64,000 nt of DNA from Panorpa germanica (Eukaryota; Arthropoda; Insecta; Mecoptera; Panorpidae), in contig OY783223.1 in NCBI GenBank assembly GCA_963678705.1, positions 5,766,001-5,830,000 of the forward strand, given 5' to 3'. Numbering within the stretch: position 1 is the first letter of the stretch; every line of letters starts with the position of its first letter. The notes under the pieces were generated by a model. It had not been told where the DNA came from. It did no database searches and worked only from the letters and a program-made list of their open reading frames with translations. The translations under genes and the position numbers were made by a program. Shown piece by piece: positions 11,264 to 59,649 of this stretch.

Positions 11264-14200
11264 TTACCTACCTGGTTGTGTTCTGTACTTCTTATACATT
11301 TTATATATAATAGGACCATTTGGTCCATTAAAACGGAGGAAGTCGTTCAGTGTTTGAACAGGATCATCAATTATTTCAATTGTTTGTAATGACGTGTCCA
11401 CGCTTCCGGCGCAATCTACGCGGTAGGGGAAGTCACATACGCCAAGTCTCTGAAAATAATATAATTAATTAAAACACTAATTAGTAATTTATAGGTTAGT
11501 TATTATACATACATCGTTGTAATTTAATCCTTCTGGACAGCTGAACTTCATAGGCATTCTGTCGGCACACACAATAAATTCACTGCAATTTAGAGGGTTC
11601 CTGTACGTTCCATATACAAATGGACATTTGTCAGGGCCAAATGGTGGTTGAGGTGCTGTAATATTAGCATAAGTATCAGGGGTATTTCTTTTTTAGTACT
11701 GAGAACGTAAATCGAAAATCTTACTTTCGTTAATTCGTTCGCCGCAATCAACATTATCAGGAAAATCACAGTTTCCATTTTCTGAAAAGAGAAGACCAGC
11801 TGGACATTTCTGTTCTATAGCTGTTTCGTCCCAACAGTTGACAAAGCTGTCACATCGAATTGTTTTGAACTGGCCGCGTGGTTTCTCACATAGGCTTAAT
11901 AAATTCACTGGTTCTAGAAATACAAAATGAATAAACGCATTTGAATCTGAGGTATAAAGAACTTTTGGTGAAATGTTAAAAGAAATGAAAAGGACAAGAC
12001 GAACACTGAACGAAATCTGAGCGAACTGGAATACACTTTATGATAAGAGGAGAGGATTGGAGAAGAAATTTTACTAACCTGATGGAGTTTCTTCTTCTGG
12101 TAAACTGCTGCCTTCTGAAGGCTCTAAAGTTGTGGAGGCTGCTTCTTCAGTAGTTGTTCCCAAGCTCGAACTATCACTTGTGGAGCTCTCGGAAGAAACT
12201 TCCACGTCAATTTCGGATGATGTTTCAATTTCAGGAGTTTTCGGTAGTTCTGTTGTAGAACTATTTTCATTTTCAAGTTCGTTACCTTCAGTTTGAGTTT
12301 CCATTTCAGGTGAAATTAATTCAGGTGCAGGATATGGAGGTCCAGGGTATATTGCTTGACCGGGATAGGGATAATATCCTGGAATTTGAATCCAGACAGA
12401 ACTAGGAGGGGGAACATTTCCTGGAGCTACACCTCCCTGAAAAATTTCATTTTTATGGAATTTTAAATGCAGTTATGTTCGTTATGCTCCAAAATAAAGA
12501 CCTGCTTCAATACTTTTTAAATAACTAGGCGATTCTGACTTTTATACGACCTTTTTTAAATTCATGGACTTTTTTTTTATAAATTTTTTTTCTGGAATCT
12601 TTGAAATTTTTTGATGCAGTTATGTTCGCTATGATTTAAAATAAAAAACACCTTCATTACATTTTAAATAACTATGCGATTCTGGTTTTTATTCGACCTT
12701 TTTTAAATTCAAGGACTTTTTTTTTCTAAAATTTTTTTTTGGATTCTTTGAAATTTTATGATGCAGTTATGTTCGCTATGATTTAAAATAAAGAACTGCT
12801 TCATTACATTTTAAATAACTATGCGATTCTGACTTTTATGCGACCTTTTTTAAATTCATGGACTTTTTTTTCTAAATATTTTTTTTGGATTTTTAAAAAA
12901 AATTTGATGCAGTTATGTTTGTTATGTTCTAAAATAAAGAACTGCTTCATTACATTTTAAATAACTATGCGATTCTGGTTTTTATTCGACCTTTTTTAAA
13001 TTCATGGACTTTTTTTTTCTAAAATTTTTTTTTGGATTCTTTGAAATTTTATGATGCAGTTATGTTCGCTATGATTTAAAATAAAGAACTGCTTCATTAC
13101 ATTTTAAATAACTATGCGATTCTGGTTTTTATTCGACCTTTTTTAAATTCATGGACTTTTTTTTTCTAAAATTTTTTTTTGGATTCTTTGAAATTTTATG
13201 ATGCAGTTATGTTCGCTATGATTTAAAATAAAGAACTGCTTCATTACATTTTAAATAACTATGCGATTCTGGTTTTTATTCGACCTTTTTTAAATTCATG
13301 GACTTTTTTTTTCTAAATTTTTATTTTGATTTATTGAAATTTTTTGATGCAATTATGTTTATTATAGTCTAAAATAAATAACTACTTCATTACATTCTAA
13401 ATATCTATGATTTTCTAGCTTTTAAGCAAATAATAATAAAGTCAAAATATCAACTTTAAAATGCCGATTACTTGAAAACTGTAAGAGATAATTGAAAATG
13501 GTTTTAATTTTTGAATTCAACATAAAAATCTACGTTAGAAAACATGTATCATGTGCCAAAATAAAATTAGTGTTATTTGTGAAAAGTAAGAAGAGTATAG
13601 CCTTCTTACTTTTCACAAAAAACACTAATTTTATTTTGGCACATGATATATGTTTTCTAACGTAGATTTTCATGCTGAATTCAAAAATGAAAACCATTTT
13701 CAATTATCTCTTACAGTTTTCAAATAATCAGCATTATAAAGTTGATATTTTGACTTTATTATTATTTGCTTAAAAGCTAGAAAATCGTAGATATTTAAAA
13801 TGTAATGAAGCAGTTCTTTATTTTAGATCATAACGAACATAACTGCATCAAATTTTTTAAAAAAATCCAAAAAAAATATTTAGAAAAAAAAGTCCATGAA
13901 TTTAAAAAAGGTCGCATAAAAGCCAGAATCGCCTAGTTATTTAAAATGTAATGGGGCAGTTTTTTATTATAGAACATAACGAACATAACTGCATCAAAAC
14001 TTTTCAAAGAATCCAAAAAAAAATATTTAGAAAAAAAAGTCCATGAATTTAAAAAAGGTCGCATAAAAGCCAGAATCGCCTAGTTATTTAAAATGTAATG
14101 AGGCAGTTTTTTTATTATAGAGCATAACGAACATAACTGCATCAAAACTTTTCAAAGAATCCAAAAAAAAATATTTAGAAAAAAAAGTCCATGAATTTAA

Positions 14201-17200
14201 AAAAGGTCGCATAAAAGCCAGAATCGCCTAGTTATTTAAAATGTAATGAAGCAGTTTTTTATTATAGAGCATAACGAACATAACTGCATCAAAACATTTC
14301 AAAGAATCCAAAAAAAATATTTAGAAAAAAAAGTCCATGAATTTAAAAAAGGTAGCATAAAAGCCAGAATCGCATAGTTATTTAAAATGTAATGAAGCAG
14401 TTCTTTATTTTAGATCATAACGAACATAACTGCATCAAATTTTTTTAAAAAATCCAAAAAAAATATTTAGAAAAAAAAGTCCACAAATTTAAAAAAGGTC
14501 GCATAAAAGCCAGAATCGCCTAGTTATTTAAAATGTAATGGAGCAGTTTTTTATTATAGAACATAACGAACATAACTGCATCAAAACTTTTCAAAGAATC
14601 CAAAAAAAAATATTTAGAAAAAAAAGTCCATGAATTTAGAAAAGGTCGCATAAAAGCCAGAACCGCCTAGTTATTTAAAATGTAATGGAGCAGTTTTTTA
14701 TTATAGAACATAACGAACATAACTGCATCAAAACTTTTCAAAGAATCCAAAAAAAAATATTTAGAAAAAAAAGTCCATGAATTTAAAAAAGGTCGCATAA
14801 AAGCCAGAATCGCCTAGTTATTTAAAATGTAATGGGGCAGTTTTTTATTATAGAACATAACGAACATAACTGCATCAAAACTTTTCAAAGAATCCAAAAA
14901 AAATATTTAGAAAAAAAAGTCCATGAATTTAAAAAAGGTCGCATAAAAGCCAGAATCGCCTAGTTATTTAAAATGTAATGAGGCAGTTTTTTATTATAGA
15001 ACATAACGAACATAACTGCATCAAAACTTTTCAAAGAATCCAAAAAAAAGTATTTAGAAAAAAAAGTCCATGAATTTAAAAAAGGTCGCATAAAAGCCAG
15101 AATCGCCTAGTTATTTAAAATGTAATGAGGCAGTTTTCTATTATAGAGCATAACGAACATAACTGCATCAAAACATTTCAAAGAATCCAAAAAAAATATT
15201 TAGAAAAAAAAGTCCATGAATTTAAAAAAGGTAGCATAAAAGCCAGAATCGCATAGTTATTTAAAATGTAATGAAGCAGTTCTTTATTTTAGATCATAAC
15301 GAACATAACTGCATCAAATTTTTTTAAAAAATCCAAAAAAAATATTTAGAAAAAAAAGTCCACGAATTTAAAAAAGGTCGCATAAAAGCCAGAATCGCCT
15401 AGTTATTTAAAATGTAATGGAGCAGTTTTTTATTATAGAACATAACGAACATAACTGCATCAAAACTTTTCAAAGAATCCAAAAAAATATATAGAAAGAA
15501 AAGTCCATGAATTTAAAAAAGGTCGCATAAAAGCCAGAATCGCATAGTTATTTAAAAAGTAATGAAGCAGTTCTTTATTTTAAATCATAGCGAACATAAC
15601 TGCATCATAAAATTTCAAAGAATCCAAAAAAAAATTTTAGAAAAAAAAAGTCCATGAATTTAAATAAGGTCGCATAAAAGCCAGAATCGCCTAGTTATTT
15701 CAAATGTAATGAAGCAGTTTTTTATTATAGAACATAACGAACATAACTGCATCAAAACTTTTCAAAGAATCCAAAAAAAATATTTAGAAAAAAAAGTCCA
15801 TGAATTTATAAAAGATTGCTATAGCCTTCTATCATCTCAATCAATGTATGAAATATAAATTTTTCTAAAATTAAAACTACATTTTCGTCGTTTTTAACAA
15901 GACTATATCGTTCTCTCATCTTTAATAATGGTATAAAATCTAATTTGCAACGCCTGATCATCAGGCAACTATATATACCCAAAAAGTATCTCTAGTTGCT
16001 TTCTGATCAGGCTATTTGCCAAAATACGACGCAAAAAAGGTAAACCTAATTTTTCATTTGAAATAGCTATATTTAAGTATTTACCTGGGCAGGTGGTGGT
16101 AGCTGCACCCCAGGAGGTTGTTGTACCCCAGGTGGTAGTTGTATTCCAGGAGGTAGAGCTACAGCAATTTGCCACTGCTGAATTTGTCTTTGAAGAGCTG
16201 CATTATCCGCATTCCGCGGGTTTAATCCATTGAGATATTGGTGCGATGAATGATGTTCTGGACCTGAACAAATGTAATTATTTACCTAATAATAACATAA
16301 ACAAAGACGCACACACATACACATACTCAAAAAGTTAACTAATTTTGAAACTAATTATTCCCGAATCTATGTTTATTGAAGCGTTATTTTTTACGCTGCG
16401 TTAAATCGATTCTTCGCTTCGGCATCGATAATGATGGACCGTCTTCGTTGTTAACACCAAGTCATCGGACAATGTCTAATGCCTGATGACTTGTCCAACG
16501 GTGTTCTAGTAGGTAGCTTTGATAATACCGAAGGACCAACTTAATTATTTTTTAATGAAAGCAGTTGTTGTTAACATTTTTACAGGAGCACGTTTGATTA
16601 CATATTAGAAAAATTATTGGAACGTCAAAATCAGTAAAAATTATTAATAATCATCGTTTAACTTAGAAGAATTTATAAGAGCCGTTATAAATGAAAAATA
16701 CGACATCTTATATATTATCACTTTTAAAAATTAATTGTAAATTTATACGGCACAACTTCTTTTAAACATAAGTGATCGTCGTTCTTTTATAATTGGAACT
16801 ATATGTATGTATCACTAATAAAAGGGACTTCATCAATTTGTCATCTAAATATCTGATGCAGAAGTGAGAACATTTTTGATAGGAACATTAAAAGAAGTCT
16901 GACTGAAATACAATCGAAATCTAAAGGGCGTTCTACACGACAGATCAGATTCAGACACAGACGAACTATCTAATTATCGTATATGTAGATCTGAAAGTAT
17001 GGAAAGACTTTACTATCAGATTTTTAGAGGTAATAACATATCTGATGCTACCGATTGCTCACCGTCAGTTCTGCTGAAGCTCTCATCCTCGTGTGTATTA
17101 TGCAATGTACATTTAGAAAATTTGAAGAGTAGTAAAATGAAATTAAAATTGAAACTAAAACTTATCTAATCGTCTTGAATGATTTTTAACAATTGCAAAA

Positions 17201-24502: not shown

Positions 24503-24679
24503 GCCCCCATTAACCCCAATGGATTCTATAATGAAGTAAAGTAATTTCGTAAAGCTCTTAAAGAAAACAAAACACATCTGTCTAGAATTATCTATGATGC
24601 CTTGATTTAGAGAGAGATTTCTGAATTCCATGGCACACTAAGATAAGAAATATTCATCATTTGCAAAACATCTCTCAAA

Positions 24680-25171
24680 ATGAGCCTCAAACAAAAATTT
24701 CAACCAATATACAAAATGAAAGCAATGTTTAAACAACAATACCCGAAATATAAAGCAACAAACAAAAGGAGAATATTATTCTCTCTGGTGAACATGTCCG
24801 CCGATTCATCGGAATTCAATTGGAATTACGAATACGAAGATCTGATAAGACTCAAAGAAGAATTCGATAAGAAACTCACAGAACTAGAGAAGGAATTCCA
24901 AAGAAAGAAATTGGCAAAATTTGATTTGAAAGACGTCTTCAAAGATGTTGAACCAGGTCAAATGTTGACGGCACAATTATTTAAAAGAAAATACACAGAA
25001 ATAACAACAACGGCAGGAAAATTACCGTCTTCTTGCATGGAATATCCATTAAGTGATTCTGATGAGAATTATTCACCCCCTAGAAAAGAAGACACTACTG
25101 ATAACGAAAAAGATTTTGATGATAGTTCGTGTCATGAGAAAGATGATTATAATTATAATAACGAAATATGA
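24680..25171 (+). CDS. Unrecognised single-exon protein with coiled coil and acidic tail
   Basis: One uninterrupted frame of 163 codons, long for DNA this AT-rich. I do not recognise the protein. An internal Met at residue 39 (MSADSSEF) may be the true start. Residues about 50-82 (LKEEFDKKLTELEKEF and neighbours) should form a coiled coil. A conserved-looking block FDLKDVFKDVEPGQMLTAQL follows. From about residue 120 the tail is rich in Asp, Glu and Ser. There is no signal peptide or membrane segment. AATAAA (25172-25177) touches the stop codon, and no introns are seen, so a retrocopy is possible. A truncated MITE ends about 180 bases upstream. Whether it is expressed cannot be judged here. 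Confidence 0.5.
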   Translation: MSLKQKFQPIYKMKAMFKQQYPKYKATNKRRILFSLVNMSADSSEFNWNYEYEDLIRLKEEFDKKLTELEKEFQRKKLAKFDLKDVFKDVEPGQMLTAQLFKRKYTEITTTAGKLPSSCMEYPLSDSDENYSPPRKEDTTDNEKDFDDSSCHEKDDYNYNNEI

Positions 25172-27370: not shown

Positions 27371-30300
27371 ATGTTGTTCAGGAGTGCTATATTGTTACTT
27401 TTAATTGTTGGTAAGTATTTAAAACAATTAATTTATTATTAATAATAATTGAAATAGTTTATAATTTATAGTGATATCTAGTTTAGTAACCGTAGATAAT
27501 TATTGGTTAATAGTTTTTATTATTATACCTTTCTATTTACTTAAAAAGTTGAAATTTTAAAACAGAAAGTTTGGTTTTTAATTTTAGAAATTATTTTTAT
27601 TGTATACTATGGAAACATATGGAATTACGGTCATTATTCATTTCTAATTAAGATTTTTAGAGCTGGTTAAGGTATTGTTCTTTAAGATATAGATAATATG
27701 ACCTTGAACTTTATACATTCTTAAACTTTAGAGCTGGCTTTATTGGAGAATGTCATTCATTTTCTTTCCTTTATTTTTTAAATTTACCAAATTGCTAATA
27801 TTTTTTTATTGTGTAATTTATAATATTTCTGAACGTAATTTTTAATGCTGATTTCAAATCTGCAATTTATTTTTATATAGGTGTCCTGGTTTTCGAGATA
27901 TCAACGTTTTAAGGCGTAAATACTGCAAATATTTAAAAATGCTCTCCAATTTTGAAATCGGCGTAAAAAAGTACGCTTAAAAACATATTTTAATTTTAAA
28001 AGAAAAATTCATATTTTTCCTGTAAATTTTAAAGGCTATACAATTGTTAATTTTATAAAAAATTGAAATATTTTTATTGCATAGTTTATAATGGTTCTTG
28101 AAGTAATTTTTTATGCTGATTTCAAATCTGCAATTTATTTTTAGATAGGAGTCCTGGTTTTCGAGATATAACCGTTTTAAGGTGTAAACAATGGAAATAT
28201 TTAAAAATGGTTTCTATTTTTAAAATCAGTTTAAAAAATACTCTTAAAAACATATTTAATATTTGAAAATAAAAATGTATTTACTACTAACTAACTATGA
28301 GTTCAGCAATCGGTGCTATGTGTGATAGTTGTTTAATATTGTCTGGTTAACTCACTATTTACAAATACCACCCTTAAATAAATGCCTTTAATAAATTCTT
28401 GCTAGTGATTTTTTGTTACTCAAAGTATCTTACACATAAAACTGTTCCTTGTCTTCAAACAGTTTGGGAACCACTGCGTTTAACAGTTTCGTTTGAAGTC
28501 TACGAGCTCTTGGTGGCACCCGAGGTCATCTTCTTCGCGGCAATGTTTTTACTTTCACTATCTCGTATATTTCACAAGTTGCGATGAGCTGCAGATGTGA
28601 TTTGACTTTTAGAATGTTATTTATTCATTTTATTTTGTTTGAACTTTCGTGTTCAGTAGATTGACATTTAAAAACAGTCGTACCATTGTACATCTCATTA
28701 ACATAAATTATACGTAAATTTGTAAAGAAACGTTATAAGTTGAAAACTGGTTAAGAATTTGTAATATTTTACTCAGTACGCAGGTTTAAGGTAGATTCAC
28801 ACCTTTTGCTTTAATTTAAATCTTAATATATATAAATTACGTGTCACGTTGTTTGTCCGTGTTTGTCGCCGATGGACTCCTAAACTACTTAACCGATTTT
28901 AATCAAATTTGTACACCCTGTGCAGTTTGATCCAACTTGAAAGATAGGATAGCTTACATCTCAATTTATTTATCTTATTGCTAATTATTTGTCTATTAAT
29001 TATCTGTATATGACATATGACATCGGGCGACGATGATGGCGACATCTGTTGACTAGATTGAGTAAATATTCTGTTGAGTAAATCGAAATCTGTTGACTAG
29101 ATTGAGTAAATATTCAATAGATGGCGCTATGTAATGTAATATGACAAAAACGTTAGGCACAGCAACGCGTGGCCGGGACAGCTAGTTTATATATATATTT
29201 ATATACATATGGGAATATGTGGAATAATTTCCTGTCTCAGTTTTAACTTAAAATTTAATTTTACCTTTAGGTGTCGTTTTAAAATCTTGCAAGGTGTTCC
29301 ACTTTATGATTTTATTTTACTTTTCAGTTTAAGTTATAACCTCCAATTTGAAACAATCTGTCAAAATGCAATAGGATTTATTTTTAAAAGAAGTTCAATG
29401 CCAGTAAGTCAAAAATAAAGAAGTAAAAACAATTTACTGTTGCGTAAGCCTCGTTCAAGAAATGAAATTGTGTGATGAGGCATTATTTTTAACTTTTCTC
29501 GAATTTGACAATTTACTTATACCATGTTATATTCTTCTACTATCTCATCCAACAATTGCTCTTTCTATTCCTTATTCTTATACGAATACTATCAAAATTT
29601 ATATTATTAAACACTGCAAAGGCGCACCAACTAAATTAAACCACGTGAAATGAATGTGACAAGAAATGCCTATTCCAAAAACCTAAAAGTTAGATTAAAA
29701 TATTACCTAAATTAAATAACAAAACAGTGAGTAGAAATGAGGATTTATTTACATGCATTTATGCTTTCTTTTTAAGAAAATTTTGAACAATTTTTTTCTT
29801 TTTGAATAACCAAGCGTTGTAAGCGTTGATTGAAATTGATGTTAATAAATGTGTATTGGCGTGTCTATTTTATTAAATATCTAAATGTTGACGGAGATAT
29901 AGCAATTAAAAGTTTAAGTTGTAGTTTTAGCGCTAGAAATGGTCGGTTTTATGTGTATGACGTGAAATGCATTTTAATGTCAGTTATTTGTTGAGTAGGT
30001 CAGTGCTGTGGTAATGTTTTGTAGCTGTTGGTAGTCGAAATAATCAAGTCAAGTCAAAGAATAATAAGTTTTTATTTTATTTAACCCTGCTAAGGCAGAC
30101 AAAATATTGAAATTTTATTGTTCCTTGAAATAGCTGTAAATAATATTTGATATTTTGATATATAAATACATATAGCAGAGATTTATGATCTGTAAGGTTG
30201 GTAACCTTACAAAAGGATTATGATGTCACATGCACTTGGAATGTGTACAATGTTGAATCCCTTTAATAATTAAAGAGACAAAATGACTTTTTTAATTGTT

Positions 30301-33300: not shown

Positions 33301-35326
33301 AATAATAGAGAAATAGGATTCTGATAGCTTGCTTATTACTTTTAGACAATTCAGTATAATTGATTTCAAAGAGAGATATTTAAAGAACTTAAAAAGTCTA
33401 AGTTGCTGTTTCACAGTTGGACGCAATCTCTTGCCAGTTAGATGCAAACATTATATATGAAATTAAAGCTAATTTTTATCTCTACACAATGCGTTACTGT
33501 TAAAGACACATAAGAGCGAGAAAGAGTTAGTACAGAACACCGGTTATCAGACAAGGACGCAGTCGTTATGAACTATGAAAAATTTCTATAGTTATTCTGA
33601 AAGTATTTAAAATTTAAAAAATATTATTTGTTTTCGAAAATATCATGCAGTTGTAAAAAGAGATATCATATTTCCTACTTCCAAGGACGTTAACAGCACA
33701 TCCGTTTGTAATTAATTAAAAAACTGTTAAATCAAATATTTAAAATCATAAAGTTAATCACATCCGGAGCTCTACCATAGAAGGTCGATCCTCAATCAAG
33801 ATAAACATAAAATTAGCATAGAATGAAATGTTTCATGTTTTGTTTAGATGTCTTCAACTTCACATGCCCCAAGGTCGATGAGATGGAAGCCCAGACCCAT
33901 CCACGTTACGCTGATCCAGAGGATTGTCAATTCTTCTACGTTTGCATCAATGGAGACACCCCAAGAAGAAATGGTTGCAAGTTGGGACAAGCATTTGACG
34001 AATCATCCAAACGTTGCAATTGGGCGAGAAAAGTCCCTGAATGGTAAAACTACATATTTATTACTTCTTTTTAAATGAAAACTCTATAGCTACATTTTGT
34101 GATCGATTTACTACTTTCTGAGAAATAAATCTTCCTTTTTTCGGGTTATTAGAATCATGTAACTTTTTAGAAAGATTTTTACTAAGGATTATACAATTTT
34201 ATGAAGTTTCGCTTTACTTTTATCTTTAGTTCAGCTTATTGTATAACATTGTAGTCACATAGGTTTCTTTGCTATTCCTTAGAGAGAATCCCTTTTTTAA
34301 CTAATCATTTGTTAATGAAGGTATTCTTGCAATTATTATAATCATGCTTTTAATTTTGGTGAGTTTTGAAGAAACGTTAAAAATTATCATCGAAAGTGTC
34401 AAGTTTTCTATTCCTTTTGAAAATTAATAATTAGAAATAATTAAAATCTCTCGTCGAGTAGTAATCCAATTAAAATAAGTAGAGTTTACCCCTTCTCTAA
34501 GCGACGTCTGTTTTATGGATAATTTGAATTCAATAAAGTAATTCATATTTTCATTTCAAATCCTAAATGTGACATTTTTGTTTTGTTTAATTTTTAATGG
34601 TTTTTGACGTAGTTTTTTATGCTGATTCCAAATCTGCTACTTATTTATAGGTGTCTTGGTTTTCGACATATCAGCATGTTGTGATGTAAATAATGTAGGT
34701 ATTTAAAAATGGTTGCCAGGTTTGAACTCAGCGTAAAAAACTACGCTAGAAACTATATTTAATACATAAAAATAAAAATATGTTTTTTATTGAAAATTTT
34801 AAAGGGTATATACTCTTGTTAATTTTATAAAAATTGACATTTTTGTTTTGTCTAATTTTTAATAATTCTTGACGTAGTTTTTATGCTGATTCCATATCTG
34901 TAATTTATTTTTAAATAGGTGTTTTGGTTTTCGAGATATTAGCATGCTTAGACGTAAATAATGCAGATATTTAAAGATGGTTTCGAGTTTTGAAATCAGC
35001 GTATAAAACTACATTAGAATATATATGTAACTTGGCAAAATAAAAAGAGTTTTTTTTATTGAAATTTTTTAAGATAATACTCTTGTTAATTGTGGCAGTA
35101 AACGCTAGTATATTTTAATCAATATAATTTTCGCAATTTCAGCAAGGATTGGTACAAAGATACCCTGACCGACGCTGATCTAGAGGCTCTGGAAAACCCT
35201 CCAACACGCAAACCAGCAACTTCAAGACCAAATCGCAGAAGACCTTCCAGACCATCAAAAACAACCAAAGTAGTTACAGAGGCCATCGATGATGACATCT
35301 CAGAGGATTACGAGACCTCTCATTAA
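27371..35326 (+). CDS. obst-B: Obstructor B: secreted chitin-binding protein with three CBM14 domains (CPAP3-B)
   Basis: Six exons: 27371-27410, 31692-31887, 32368-32486, 32565-32765, 33848-34043 and 35143-35326. All are GT-AG and give 311 residues. Residues 1-18 are the signal peptide. Residues 23-57 are a basic then acidic spacer (RKQQSKENARRRQAQ, ADEDEGE). CBM14 domains have cysteines at 59/72/78/88/104/112, 127/142/148/158/171/182 and 192/212/218/229/242/251. Blocks such as YCVDGKFNMITCP, NGCKLGQ and DWYKDTLTD match my memory of insect Obst-B. The tail is basic and Pro/Thr/Ser-rich, then acidic. The family binds chitin in the assembling cuticle. Intron 2 splits domain 1 after Cys78, intron 5 splits the last cysteine. 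The 4.3-kb first intron holds a Helitron-like element and a MITE. It heads a plus-strand cluster with obst-A and a third paralogue. Confidence 0.92.
28821..29185 (+). mobile_element. Short non-autonomous Helitron-like element
   Basis: Starts TCTTAATATATATAAATTAC after an A and ends GGGACAGCTAG before a T, as expected for Helitron insertion between A and T. The 5' part (CACGTTGTTTGTCCG, TGGACTCCTAAACTACTTAA, CCGATTTTAAT) resembles the common insect Helitron 5' region. An imperfect GC-rich hairpin (CAACGCGTGG) precedes the end. It sits in intron 1 of obst-B. Confidence 0.6.
29825..30421 (+). mobile_element. MITE family 1, copy 8 (5' end lost)
   Basis: Begins at GTTGATTGAAATTGATGTTA and ends with the intact GGACACAAGCCCATT, in intron 1 of obst-B. 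About 50 bases of the 5' end are missing. Confidence 0.85.
30430..30730. promoter_or_regulatory. Candidate regulatory block in obst-B intron 1
   Basis: An island of higher complexity and G+C in an AT-rich intron, with no open frame and no resemblance to the repeats of the window. It includes ATTA-type homeodomain-like sites (GGTAATTAGCCTTATAATTA), ATGCATATTAATGAG and a G-rich run near 30640-30690. Function as an enhancer is inference. Confidence 0.3.
32978..33239 (-). mobile_element. MITE family 2, copy in obst-B intron 4 (reverse)
   Basis: Runs from CCCAGTAAACATTTTTGGGC to TTCACCAAATGTTTACTGGA, 262 bases. This is the longest of the short subfamily and keeps the middle (CAGTTTCTCACAATCGTTCA) missing in the copy at 10652. 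Confidence 0.85.
34482..35090 (-). mobile_element. Decayed Helitron-like remnant in obst-B intron 5
   Basis: The left edge, AGTAGAGTTTACCCC then TAAGCGACG, is the inverted and altered form of the terminus at 10461-10489. Its interior has two direct copies of a unit containing ATGCTGATTCCAAATCTG and GGTTTTCGA-ATA. The same unit occurs twice at 27840-28200 and, inverted, twice at 41770-42140. Confidence 0.5.
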
Positions 35327-41281: not shown

Positions 41282-44200
41282 ATGAGGAGTTTTGCTTTTG
41301 TTCTGTTGGCGGCGCTTGCAGTTTCTTCAAGTAAGTTTATTTTTTGTTTTAATTATTATCTAATAATATTAAATATTTTACGAAATATATCCAAGTAGAA
41401 ACTTGTTTTGCAATGCACGCTTGACATTTTCTAGCTTGTCATAAGGTTCTGATTCTCATGCAGAAATTGTCTTACAATGGAGTTTTATACGTGCTAGGTT
41501 ACTACAAGCTCATTTCAGTTACATTTTCTACCTGGGTATATTTCATTTAATTATATTCTAAAAATTAAATTGTATCTTGCACACAGATATGTTTATTTCA
41601 GTTTAAATTAAGATGATTTATTTGTAAGCGATCCTTCTCATCATTCTGTTACATTTAATTTATTTAACGTCGGTTTAATTTTTATGAAATTATTTAGGCT
41701 ATAACCTTCAAAATTTTCGCTGAAAAACATATTTTTATTTTAACGTAAGAAATATATATTTTCTAACGTAGTTTTTTAAGCTAATTTCAAAACTGGTAAC
41801 CATTTTCAATTATCTGTATTATTTACACCTGAACATGCCGATATCTCGAAAACGAAGACACCTACTTAAAAATGAATTGCAGATTAAACCATTAAAAATT
41901 AAACAAAATTAAAATGTCATTTTTTAAGAAATTATCAAGCTTTAAAATTTTTAATAAAAAAAAACATATTTTTATTTTGACGTATTAAATACAGATTCTA
42001 GTGTAGTTTTTTACGCTGATTTCAAAACCGGAAACAGTTTTTAAATATCTATATTATTTATGCCTGAGCATGCTGATATCTCGAAAACCAAGACACGTAT
42101 CTAAAAATAAAATGGTGATTTGGAATTACCATAAAAACCTACGTCAAGAACCATTGAAAATTAAACATGTAATTTTATATCAATTATGAATTATTTTTCA
42201 AATTCAAATCATACACAAAACTGACTTCGCTTAGCGACGGGATAAACTCTAGTATAATAAATAGTACAATACAATATCCTGTATAAGATATACCACTGAT
42301 CTAAGATTTGAAATTAGAAATTTCTACTATCTCCAAGTTGTGACCTTTTTTAATACAAAATGTTAGATTCTATTAACTTCTTACTTACAATGAGTAGTAG
42401 TACATAATCAATTACATAGTGACACGTACACAGAAATGAACAGCTATATAATAACTGTATATGCAATAAAACTAATAATCATATAATATCAGAAGTGGGA
42501 TTTGTGGTATAAGTTGAATAAACGTGAGCCGTTGTTGTCTTGAGGTAGTCATTAGTATTCAGCGAAGAAACTAATGAATTATTTATTGTCATGCATTCAA
42601 TTAGCATGCATGCATTGTACATTTCACTGGCTAGGTAGGCGTGGTAGGCTATGGAATACAAATTACCTCAAAGATTTGAATATTTAATGTTTCTTTGTTG
42701 TTATAAATAACTTGGCTTTTATGCAGATTGAAGGTATCCAACAGATCCACTGATATAGATTATAAATTATCTATTGTAAATGTTTAAAACTGAATATATT
42801 GTTTTAAGAGCTAATAACTATCGAAAGTTGATGCACTCAAATAAATATTTTTAAAAAAAACGAACAATGATACTACAGTGATATCCTTTATAAGTATATA
42901 AAAATATATAATATTGTAGTTATGAGGTTTATAACAACTTAACTACCTTAAGGAGGTACATGACGTACCGTCAAAAATGCAAAAAGTTTATCTCTTGGTA
43001 ATACGAAATGTAAAATACGAGGTACATGAGGGACGAGCAAATATTGGGACTGTATCTTTGAAAATGAATTTTTCAATTCCCTATTAAACTGCTATTTGCT
43101 AGCTAAAATGATTTTTTTATGCATATAATAGTTAAATAAATGAAAAATTACCTATAATTAATATCAAATTTATATTAATTCAATTTAAATACAAATTAAA
43201 TATTTTGAAAAAGGAATAATAAATTTGGCAACGCTGTAAATTTACGTGTGTTGACGCATGCGTGATTTGGTTCTTTGACAAATAAATTGTTATATTTTAT
43301 AAAATATTTATTCCGATTTTGAATTTCCCGCTCAAATTGGGATTTGCAACGTTGCCGGCTTATAACCTACACTTACTGTTTCTTACTGGTTTTATTTAAA
43401 TATTTTCGTATATAGGTATCCTTTTGATAATTTTCTTTTTGCAATAGTTACAGAAAAGATTACTTTATATACACCTAGTTTTTGAAAGCCGTGTCACCAT
43501 TTTTTCATAGTTAAGAGTTATATTATGTGGTGAAATTGAGCTAAAAATTATGATTTGTATGGAAAATGACTATTTTTAATCATGTATAAAAAGAAAACTA
43601 TGAACCCTAGGTCTCTAAAATTTTGAGACAGCATGTATTTTAACTATTTGTATCGACCCTCCAAATTTCACAACGTTTTCATCATTTACGTTAACGTCCT
43701 ATACCTCCTTAAGGTACTAAAGTATTTAACTTTTTTCTTTCCTATATTCCTGACAGCGCTGCACCTTTTCCCGAAACTTACATTACCAAGAAATGTAGAA
43801 TGTTTCTTTGAATTGTTATTAACATCAAAACAAGTTCTAAAAGCAGTTCACCTCGACTCCTTAAGCGAAATGTTAACCAATTCAGAAAATATCGAACGTG
43901 AATGTTACCTGGTTGTACTACAACCGTCGGTGCCAGATTGTCAGATTGTCAGATTGTCGACAGACATTTCACTTTCAATGAATCTCGTTGTTAATTTATT
44001 TATTATTCAGCATCACTACGGATATTTATAATTAGCAGCATTTGAATTTTAAATTAATTAGTTTAACATTTGGAATATTATAAGTCAGAATTTGTTATAC
44101 AACATTCTTTAATGTTAACTGAATTTAAATATATTCCGTTAAATGAATAGATTATTTGTCCAATAACTCATGTTATTTATAGTTTAATGGTAAGATTACA

Positions 44201-59189: not shown

Positions 59190-59523
59190 CAGTTTTGTTA
59201 ATAATATTTGTAAGAATATTTTGAAAGTTTAATCATCTCAATATTTTAAATATTACTTAAACTATAACAATTTAAAGTGAGCGGTGTATATTTATACTAT
59301 AATCTTTTTTCTTTTGCGTTTATTTCGGAAATGTTTTCCTCCAACTATCGCACCGATACTTTCAAAACTATTAAACCAATCTTAATAAAAATTACTCCAT
59401 AACTTCTTTTTTGTATTATCTTTCGTGTAGTATATGCTTTATGCAGTTATTTTTATTTTAAACTATTATTTTAAAGACATAAAATACGCCATCTATTAAA
59501 CAGTAGTGTATATATTACAGCGC

Positions 59524-59597
59524 CTGATCAGTTTGCAACTATATACGCATGCAACCATGTATACTTTTATTTGTGTATATAGTTGCATTCTGATCAG
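59524..59597. repeat. Small palindromic element ending in CTGATCAG
   Basis: CTGATCAG then TTTGCAACTATATAC at the left are mirrored by GTATATAGTTGCA and CTGATCAG at the right, 74 bases in all. Same design as 15953-16012. Confidence 0.6.
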
Positions 59598-59649
59598 CCG
59601 TTGAAAATAGAATTTTTCTAGATTATTTGACATAAAAGCTCAAGGGACC

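What the first reader, a model, noticed from the sequence alone, without database searches (positions are those of the whole stretch)
12456..15815. Giant inverted satellite array inside an intron: possible long hairpin RNA source
Seven 147-bp units face fourteen reversed units across a near-perfect palindromic core, all within intron 2 of a transcribed gene. The pre-mRNA could fold into a stem over 1 kb long. Long hairpin RNAs of this build feed the endo-siRNA pathway in flies, and such duplexes are also editing targets. The unit length equals nucleosome DNA length, common for satellites. It could be a Foldback-type element or a satellite seed.
Basis: partly seen in the sequence, partly recalled or inferred. 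Interest (0 to 1): 0.78.

Follow-up and report, generated by a model that had tools for sequence, protein, structure and literature searches.

The report
Dispersed foldback element made of repeats
An intron in what looks like an insect gene holds one copy of a repeat-element family found at dozens of other places in the same genome; its two halves are mirror images, so its RNA could fold into a hairpin over a thousand bases long, but it is best read as mobile DNA rather than a purpose-built RNA gene.

Summary
The inverted array is real: seven 147-bp units (12456-13477) face fourteen and a half reversed units (13718-15815) across a 240-bp palindromic core, inside a GT-AG intron (12437-16084, minus strand) of a chitin-binding (CBM_14) gene. 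It is not unique. In the same 464-Mb genome the unit has at least 260 matches and the core 46 scored places (40 full-length). In 21 of 21 loci examined the units converge on the centre in one polarity. In 41 of 41 cores the two mirror arms (mean 90.5% identical) differ more from each other than from the best other copy (98.5%). So the palindrome was copied whole, mismatches included, which argues strongly against an assembly fold-back. Similarity to the family stops near 16012, leaving about 91 nt of host intron. Of 20 fetched loci, 6 carry a Helitron-type 3' end (hairpin plus CTAG-like end; strict CTRR in 3), and Helitron Rep genes abound, but the window copy lacks that end and no partner was identified. 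Best reading: a truncated copy of a non-autonomous foldback family, perhaps moved by rolling-circle enzymes. The RNA hairpin is only predicted; small RNAs, editing and transcription could not be tested, and core pairing is eroding.

The parts
12437..16084 (-). host intron (3648 nt, GT...AG) of a CBM_14 (peritrophin-like) gene
   Evidence: splice borders and open frame read from sequence; CBM_14 in stretches 11492-11692 and 11696-12037
12456..13477 (+). left arm: seven units of 146-147 bp, the innermost (13346-13477) degenerate
13478..13717 (.). 240-bp palindromic core, centre about 13597
   Evidence: 46 scored places in the genome, each matching on both strands
13718..15815 (-). right arm: fourteen reversed units plus a 62-bp partial; units R2-R6 recur as R8-R12 (97-100%), R7 and R13 at 92%
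15816..15946 (.). about 1.5 units of an 87-88-bp repeat that forms tandem arrays elsewhere; 15820-15914 aligns with the left outer flank of L099, outside its Helitron-type end
15950..16012 (-). outer hairpin with the GCCTGATCAG motif; similarity of the window to nine other genome places stops here
12077..12436 (-). exon downstream of the intron (open frame ...QGGVAPGNV...)
   Evidence: borders read by eye
16085..16261 (-). exon upstream of the intron (approximate start; open frame ...VQLPPPAQ)
   Evidence: borders read by eye

Best explanation
The array is a truncated copy of a dispersed, non-autonomous foldback-like transposable element family. Long mirror-image arms of 147-bp tandem units meet at a palindromic core; fuller copies carry conserved outer ends. 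Shown: the family exists at many loci in one polarity, and the palindrome is copied as a whole with its old arm mismatches. The window copy has one recognisable outer part ending near 16012 and lost the other. Its right arm grew by duplicating a block of five to six units. Inferred: copies were moved by rolling-circle (Helitron-type) enzymes acting in trans, because several copies have Helitron-type 3' ends and the genome is full of Helitron Rep genes. Inferred: one copy landed in an intron of about 91 nt. Predicted only: when the gene is transcribed the intron folds into a stem of over 1 kb, which Dicer or ADAR could use; I take this as a by-product, not a maintained function.
For: At least 260 unit matches (40 of 739 candidates scored) on 14 listed contigs. 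21 of 21 loci (20 fetched plus the window) have convergent units; 14 of the 20 had been picked from hits listed on one strand only. 46 core places, 40 full-length, each matching on both strands. 41 of 41 cores: within-locus arm identity (mean 90.5%) is below the best other copy (mean 98.5%). Outer motif (A/C)GCCTGA: 20 hits pointing inward and 6 outward in 20,564 bp of flank; the 64-kb window has 5 on both strands, 2 of them in this element's own flank. Helitron-type 3' end in 6 of 20 loci, 170 genome matches to its pattern with up to 2 mismatches against 0 for the reversed control, and on both outer sides of the palindromes L098 and L099, which were chosen because their ends face outward. PF14214: 150 of 150 scored candidates (893 found) above cut-off. 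Window right border at 16012.
Against: The window copy has no Helitron-type 3' end. Strict CTRR is met in 3 of the 6 ends (L034, L039, L049); the other three differ by one base, and the pattern was written after seeing the ends. Target-site duplications were looked for by eye in L031, L036, L042 and the window and none was seen; empty sites were not searched. By eye, none of the 150 listed Rep places lies within 100 kb of the 100 listed 3' ends (of 170), so no autonomous partner is identified. 5' Helitron ends were not resolved: the TC candidate is preceded by sequence shared between copies. The nesting of the 87-88-bp repeat, the CTAG end and the GCCTGA end is unclear. Clustering of related cores by contig (25 of 41 nearest neighbours; permuted mean 4.9) could also come from spreading without a transposase.
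Confidence: 0.7

Rival explanations
1. A functional hairpin-RNA locus: the intron hairpin is diced into siRNAs that silence other copies of the family or a host gene, and is kept for that.
For: Predicted fold of the whole intron: 79% paired, 1059 pairs enclosing the centre, helices of 72, 51 and 50 bp (no shuffle control); 106-bp exact inverted run. Drosophila simulans hpRNAs can have transposon-derived arms (PMC10317233, passages).
Against: Pairing is eroding in the cores: 63 mismatched cells against 1 cell changed on both arms in the 7 C20 copies, 398 against 13 in the other 34 (copies are related, so the counts are not independent). The anatomy is that of a repeat family found at many loci. 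No RNA data.
Confidence: 0.1
2. A cut-and-paste foldback transposon of the Mutator or P type, like Tetris or Galileo, rather than a rolling-circle one.
For: Same modular plan as Tetris: outer domain, tandem repeats in the arms, inner domain, variable middle (PMC4079207). Related GCCTGA-type ends on both sides in L031, L036, L037, L042, L045.
Against: No target-site duplication seen by eye in the few copies looked at. Hairpin-plus-CTAG-like ends in 6 of 20 loci resemble the Helitron hallmark (PMC4067079, passages).
Confidence: 0.25
3. Satellite arrays spread without a transposase, by extrachromosomal circles or segmental duplication, carrying the inverted junction along.
For: Related cores cluster by contig (25 of 41); one copy, L037, sits in a palindrome that takes in about 1.1 kb outside its arrays at 99% identity; both arms of the window are cut inside a unit.
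Against: Shared outer end motifs at similar distances from the arrays and a 3' end pattern with 170 genome matches.
Confidence: 0.2
4. Independent local inversion of a tandem array at this locus, or an assembly fold-back.
Against: Same convergent structure at 21 of 21 loci; arm mismatches shared with other loci and not with the sister arm; arms of 7 and 14 units.
Confidence: 0.02

Closest known systems
Tetris of Drosophila virilis (foldback, TIR-220 repeats; PMC4079207: abstract, section 10 and part 1 of section 16 read)
   Different: unit 147 bp instead of about 220; core itself a palindrome; Helitron-type ends in some copies; no 8-10-bp duplication seen
Galileo / Foldback elements (PMC3573991, passages read)
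   Same: internally repetitive long arms, unequal repeat numbers on the two sides, chimeric copies
   Different: no transposase searched or 7-bp duplication seen here; many more units per arm
Non-autonomous Helentrons/HINEs carrying satellite repeats (oyster Cg_HINE, PMC7492417; DINE-1, PMC4067079; passages read)
   Same: dispersed short arrays of satellite-like units with conserved flanks; palindromic motif near an end
   Different: in Cg_HINE the repeats keep one orientation relative to the flanks; here two arrays face each other
Drosophila hairpin RNAs (PMC10317233, passages read)
   Same: long inverted repeat that could be transcribed, sometimes from transposon sequence
   Different: no small RNAs known here; dozens of copies scored; pairing not kept in the cores

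Membership tests
Foldback-type element | long terminal inverted repeats | tested here: met
   convergent arms in 21 of 21 loci
Foldback-type element | tandem repeats inside the arms | tested here: met
   147-bp units, 7 and 14 in the window
Foldback-type element | target-site duplication (8-10 bp in Tetris) | tested here: inconclusive
   none seen by eye in L031, L036, L042 or the window; ends not fully resolved, window copy truncated
Foldback-type element | Mutator- or P-type transposase partner | not tested
   no search made
Helitron (non-autonomous) | 3' end CTRR with a hairpin about 11 nt upstream | tested here: inconclusive
   hairpin, 9-10 nt and a CTAG-like end in 6 of 20 loci, strict CTRR in 3 of these 6; 170 genome matches to the pattern against 0 control; not present in the window copy
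Helitron (non-autonomous) | 5' end TC | tested here: inconclusive
   TC candidate in L037, L039, L041, L042, L063, L064 but its upstream sequence is shared between copies
Helitron (non-autonomous) | insertion between A and T without duplication | tested here: inconclusive
   T follows the CTAG-like end in 5 of 6 loci; no empty site was searched
Helitron (non-autonomous) | Rep/helicase partner sharing its ends | tested here: inconclusive
   Rep genes abundant but none of 150 listed lies near any of the 100 listed 3' ends (by eye)
Hairpin RNA / endo-siRNA locus | long intramolecular duplex in a transcript | tested here: inconclusive
   duplex predicted; transcription not shown
Hairpin RNA / endo-siRNA locus | Dicer-2-dependent 21-22-nt RNAs | not testable with these tools
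   no RNA data
Hairpin RNA / endo-siRNA locus | pairing kept by compensatory change | tested here: not met
   (cores only): 1 and 13 double changes against 63 and 398 mismatched cells
Satellite DNA | arrays of tandem units | tested here: met
   arms of up to about 40 units (L049); large heterochromatic blocks were not tested

The most novel reading that the evidence does not exclude
The family is a hybrid class: inverted-dimer rolling-circle elements, in which two Helitron-like arms joined head to head at a palindromic core, both 3' ends facing outward, spread as one unit in chromosome-specific subfamilies. They would seed dozens, perhaps hundreds, of kilobase-long hairpins in introns and between genes.
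Probability: 0.32. Interest if true: 0.68.

Novelty: new variant of a known kind. Interest (0 to 1): 0.5.

Why it matters
It gives one genome with dozens of sampled, and possibly hundreds of, natural kilobase palindromes of known relatedness. With these one can test how foldback elements arise, whether rolling-circle enzymes can move a palindrome, how arm repeats grow into satellites, and whether long intronic hairpins alter splicing or feed RNA interference. The arm-versus-copy comparison used here is also a simple sequence-only test against fold-back assembly artefacts.

Tried and rejected
Iterated profile search of the unit across the window drifted into A+T-rich noise; only the strong hits at 12467-15878 were used. 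Rfam at gathering thresholds and the ARAGORN scan with bacterial code: nothing in the window. The pairwise BLAST output of L063 and L064 was cut and not read in full. Searching the literature for the end motif listed unrelated papers. Eight paper searches were made; their listings, titles and abstract starts, showed no element of this hybrid build; most papers were not opened. The idea that each palindrome is homogenised by conversion between its own arms was rejected on 41 cores. A first run on 8 cores was less clear: mean arm-to-arm identity 91.7% against 91.1% between loci for the same arm, or 92.3% against 93.9% without L049, whose two arms were then each other's closest. The idea that the window's right flank is host intron was rejected. 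ADAR and Dicer searches did not complete.
Full report
CHECK OF THE OBSERVATION. TRF and repeat search confirm two facing arrays of a 146-147-bp unit, 12459-13409 and 13788-15814. Cutting them into units gives seven left units and fourteen right units plus a partial one; the innermost unit on each side (13346-13477 and 13718-13849) is degenerate and merges into the core. The core matches its own reverse complement at 297 of 317 positions around 13597. Left and right arms agree at 1020 of 1128 aligned positions in one register, with a longest exact inverted run of 106 bp against 14 bp in 20 shuffles.

The structure sits in a minus-strand intron, 12437-16084. The reading frame runs from ...VQLPPPAQ (exon ending at 16085) into GGVAPGNV... 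(exon from 12436), with GTAAAT and TTTTTCAG at the borders. Two stop-free stretches downstream, 11492-11692 and 11696-12037, match CBM_14, a chitin-binding domain. Transcription and the intron's number were not tested.

IT IS A FAMILY. The window is G000:C20:5766001-5830000 of a 464-Mb assembly. The unit has at least 260 matches (40 of 739 candidates scored; the window's own units are among them), listed on 14 contigs. I fetched 20 loci. All 20, and the window, have the same plan: units pointing inward, a core or a nearly direct junction, units pointing inward from the other side. Some have extras, such as a third array in L046 or two core copies in L034 and L043. For 14 of the 20 the listing had shown hits on one strand only, so the choice did not favour inverted loci. 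Two core classes exist. One is related to the window's core; the other is longer (about 350-750 bp) and entered at a different unit position. Both centre on the same short palindrome around GAAAAGTAAGAAG. Two loci (L032, L044) have arms that meet almost directly. L047 has arms about 2.5 kb long at 95% identity.

THE PALINDROME IS COPIED WHOLE. The core has 92 matches, which are 46 places each matching on both strands, 40 of them full-length; only 40 of 1193 candidates were scored. I compared the two halves of 41 cores: 7 from fetched loci on C20 and C21, the window, and 33 fetched as short pieces. The mean identity between the two arms of one locus is 90.5%. The mean identity to the best other locus is 98.5%. 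In 0 of 41 is the sister arm the closer relative. An earlier run with 8 cores was less clear: arm-to-arm 91.7% against 91.1% between loci for the same arm, or 92.3% against 93.9% without L049, whose two arms had no close relative in that set. Fold-back assembly errors, fresh local inversions and conversion between sister arms would give arms that match each other best, which is not what one search shows. The nearest relative lies on the same contig in 25 of 41 cases, against a permuted mean of 4.9 and a maximum of 14 in 10,000 shuffles. The nearest relatives of the 7 C20 cores are all on C20. The sample is the top of a ranked list, so it is not random.

ENDS. Outside the arrays, copies share end sequences. 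A motif reading (A/C)GCCTGA towards the array occurs 20 times in 20,564 bp of flank, and 6 times in the other direction; the window as a whole has 5 on both strands, 2 of them in this element's flank. Inward hits occur in 14 of 21 loci, the window included. A second end type, in 6 of 20 loci (L033, L034, L039, L040, L043, L049), is a hairpin followed by 9-10 nt and a CTAG-like end, with T next in 5 of 6; the end is strict CTRR in L034, L039 and L049 and one base off in the others. The search pattern was written after I had seen these ends. It resembles the canonical Helitron 3' end (hairpin about 11 bp from a 3' CTRR, insertion between A and T; PMC4067079, passages). A 32-letter pattern of it has 170 matches in the genome, with up to 2 mismatches, and the reversed control none. 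Among the 100 listed, four pairs face outward at 2.7-3.5 kb; I fetched two (L098, L099), and both are palindromes of the same units whose mirror symmetry goes on beyond the CTAG ends. Helitron_like_N (PF14214) gives 150 of 150 scored candidates above the cut-off, many in long open frames. By eye, no listed Rep place lies within 100 kb of a listed 3' end, so a partner is not identified.

THE WINDOW COPY. Its left arm stops 19 nt from the acceptor site. On the right, 15820-15914 aligns with the left outer flank of L099, beyond its CTAG end (score 50; best of 500 shuffles 31). The other eight flanks tried did not exceed all their shuffles; the right flank of L099 came closest (38, with 95% of shuffles below 27 and a best of 41). 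A genome search with 15816-16084 is much stronger (best other match E = 4.7e-26) and shows two things. Positions 15818-15946 belong to an 87-88-bp repeat that forms tandem arrays elsewhere. Nine other places run on and stop at query 196-200, window 16012. Several of those nine stay alike a little beyond that point, where the window departs from them, so the border may be a truncation. What remains as host intron is about 91 nt. The window copy has no CTAG end. Its right arm contains a duplicated block: R2-R6 against R8-R12 at 97-100%, R7 against R13 at 92%.

HOW IT WORKS. Shown: dispersal of the palindrome as a unit; growth of an arm by block duplication. Inferred: movement by rolling-circle enzymes in trans. 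Predicted: the intron RNA folds into one long stem (MFE -1665.9 kcal/mol, 79% paired, 1059 pairs enclosing the centre; no shuffle control). Such a duplex could be cut by Dicer, edited, or affect splicing, since the stem begins next to the acceptor site. Against a maintained RNA function, the 7 C20 cores have 63 mismatched cells and 1 cell changed on both arms together; the other 34 cores have 398 and 13. Shared ancestry makes these counts non-independent, and arrays were not tested this way.

KNOWN RELATIVES. The plan is that of foldback elements, closest to Tetris (PMC4079207; abstract, section 10, part 1 of section 16) and Galileo (PMC3573991, passages). Satellite arrays carried by rolling-circle elements are known in oysters, but there the repeats keep one orientation (PMC7492417, passages). 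A combination of facing satellite arms with Helitron-type 3' ends did not appear in the listings of my searches, of which I saw titles and abstract starts. I therefore call it a new variant of a known kind.

ODDS.

Noticed in passing
window 27929-28180, 34565-35091, 41679-42132: Diverged relatives of the palindromic core without unit arrays; the 34565-35091 copy is a 268-bp unit repeated twice.
   Followed up: partly
window 59521-59600: A solo copy of the outer hairpin (GCGCCTGATCAG ... CTGATCAG), like a small separate mobile element.
   Followed up: no
L037 2165-7141: One copy lies in a larger palindrome: about 1.1 kb outside the arrays on each side is inverted-duplicated at 99%, with a 225-bp insertion on one side. 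Either a recent inverted duplication around the element or an assembly fold-back.
   Followed up: partly
G000 C21:1026634-1035824, C11:9463732-9468288, C14:5906284-5909364: Tandem arrays of an 87-88-bp repeat related to window 15816-15946.
   Followed up: no
G000 C20 (10 Mb) and C12: The seven full-length cores closest to or including the window's are all on the small contig C20; three cores on C12, up to 12 Mb apart, are identical over the compared halves. Chromosome-specific subfamilies.
   Followed up: partly
G000, mainly C1, C2, C5: Very many Helitron Rep domains, many in long open frames and of equal score, suggesting recent Helitron activity.
   Followed up: no
window 24647-25168: A 174-aa open frame with no Pfam match.
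   Followed up: no
L031, L042, L064 left flanks and L103, L105: An AGATGGCGC-like motif lies outside the GCCTGA-type end, possibly part of the true outermost end.
   Followed up: no
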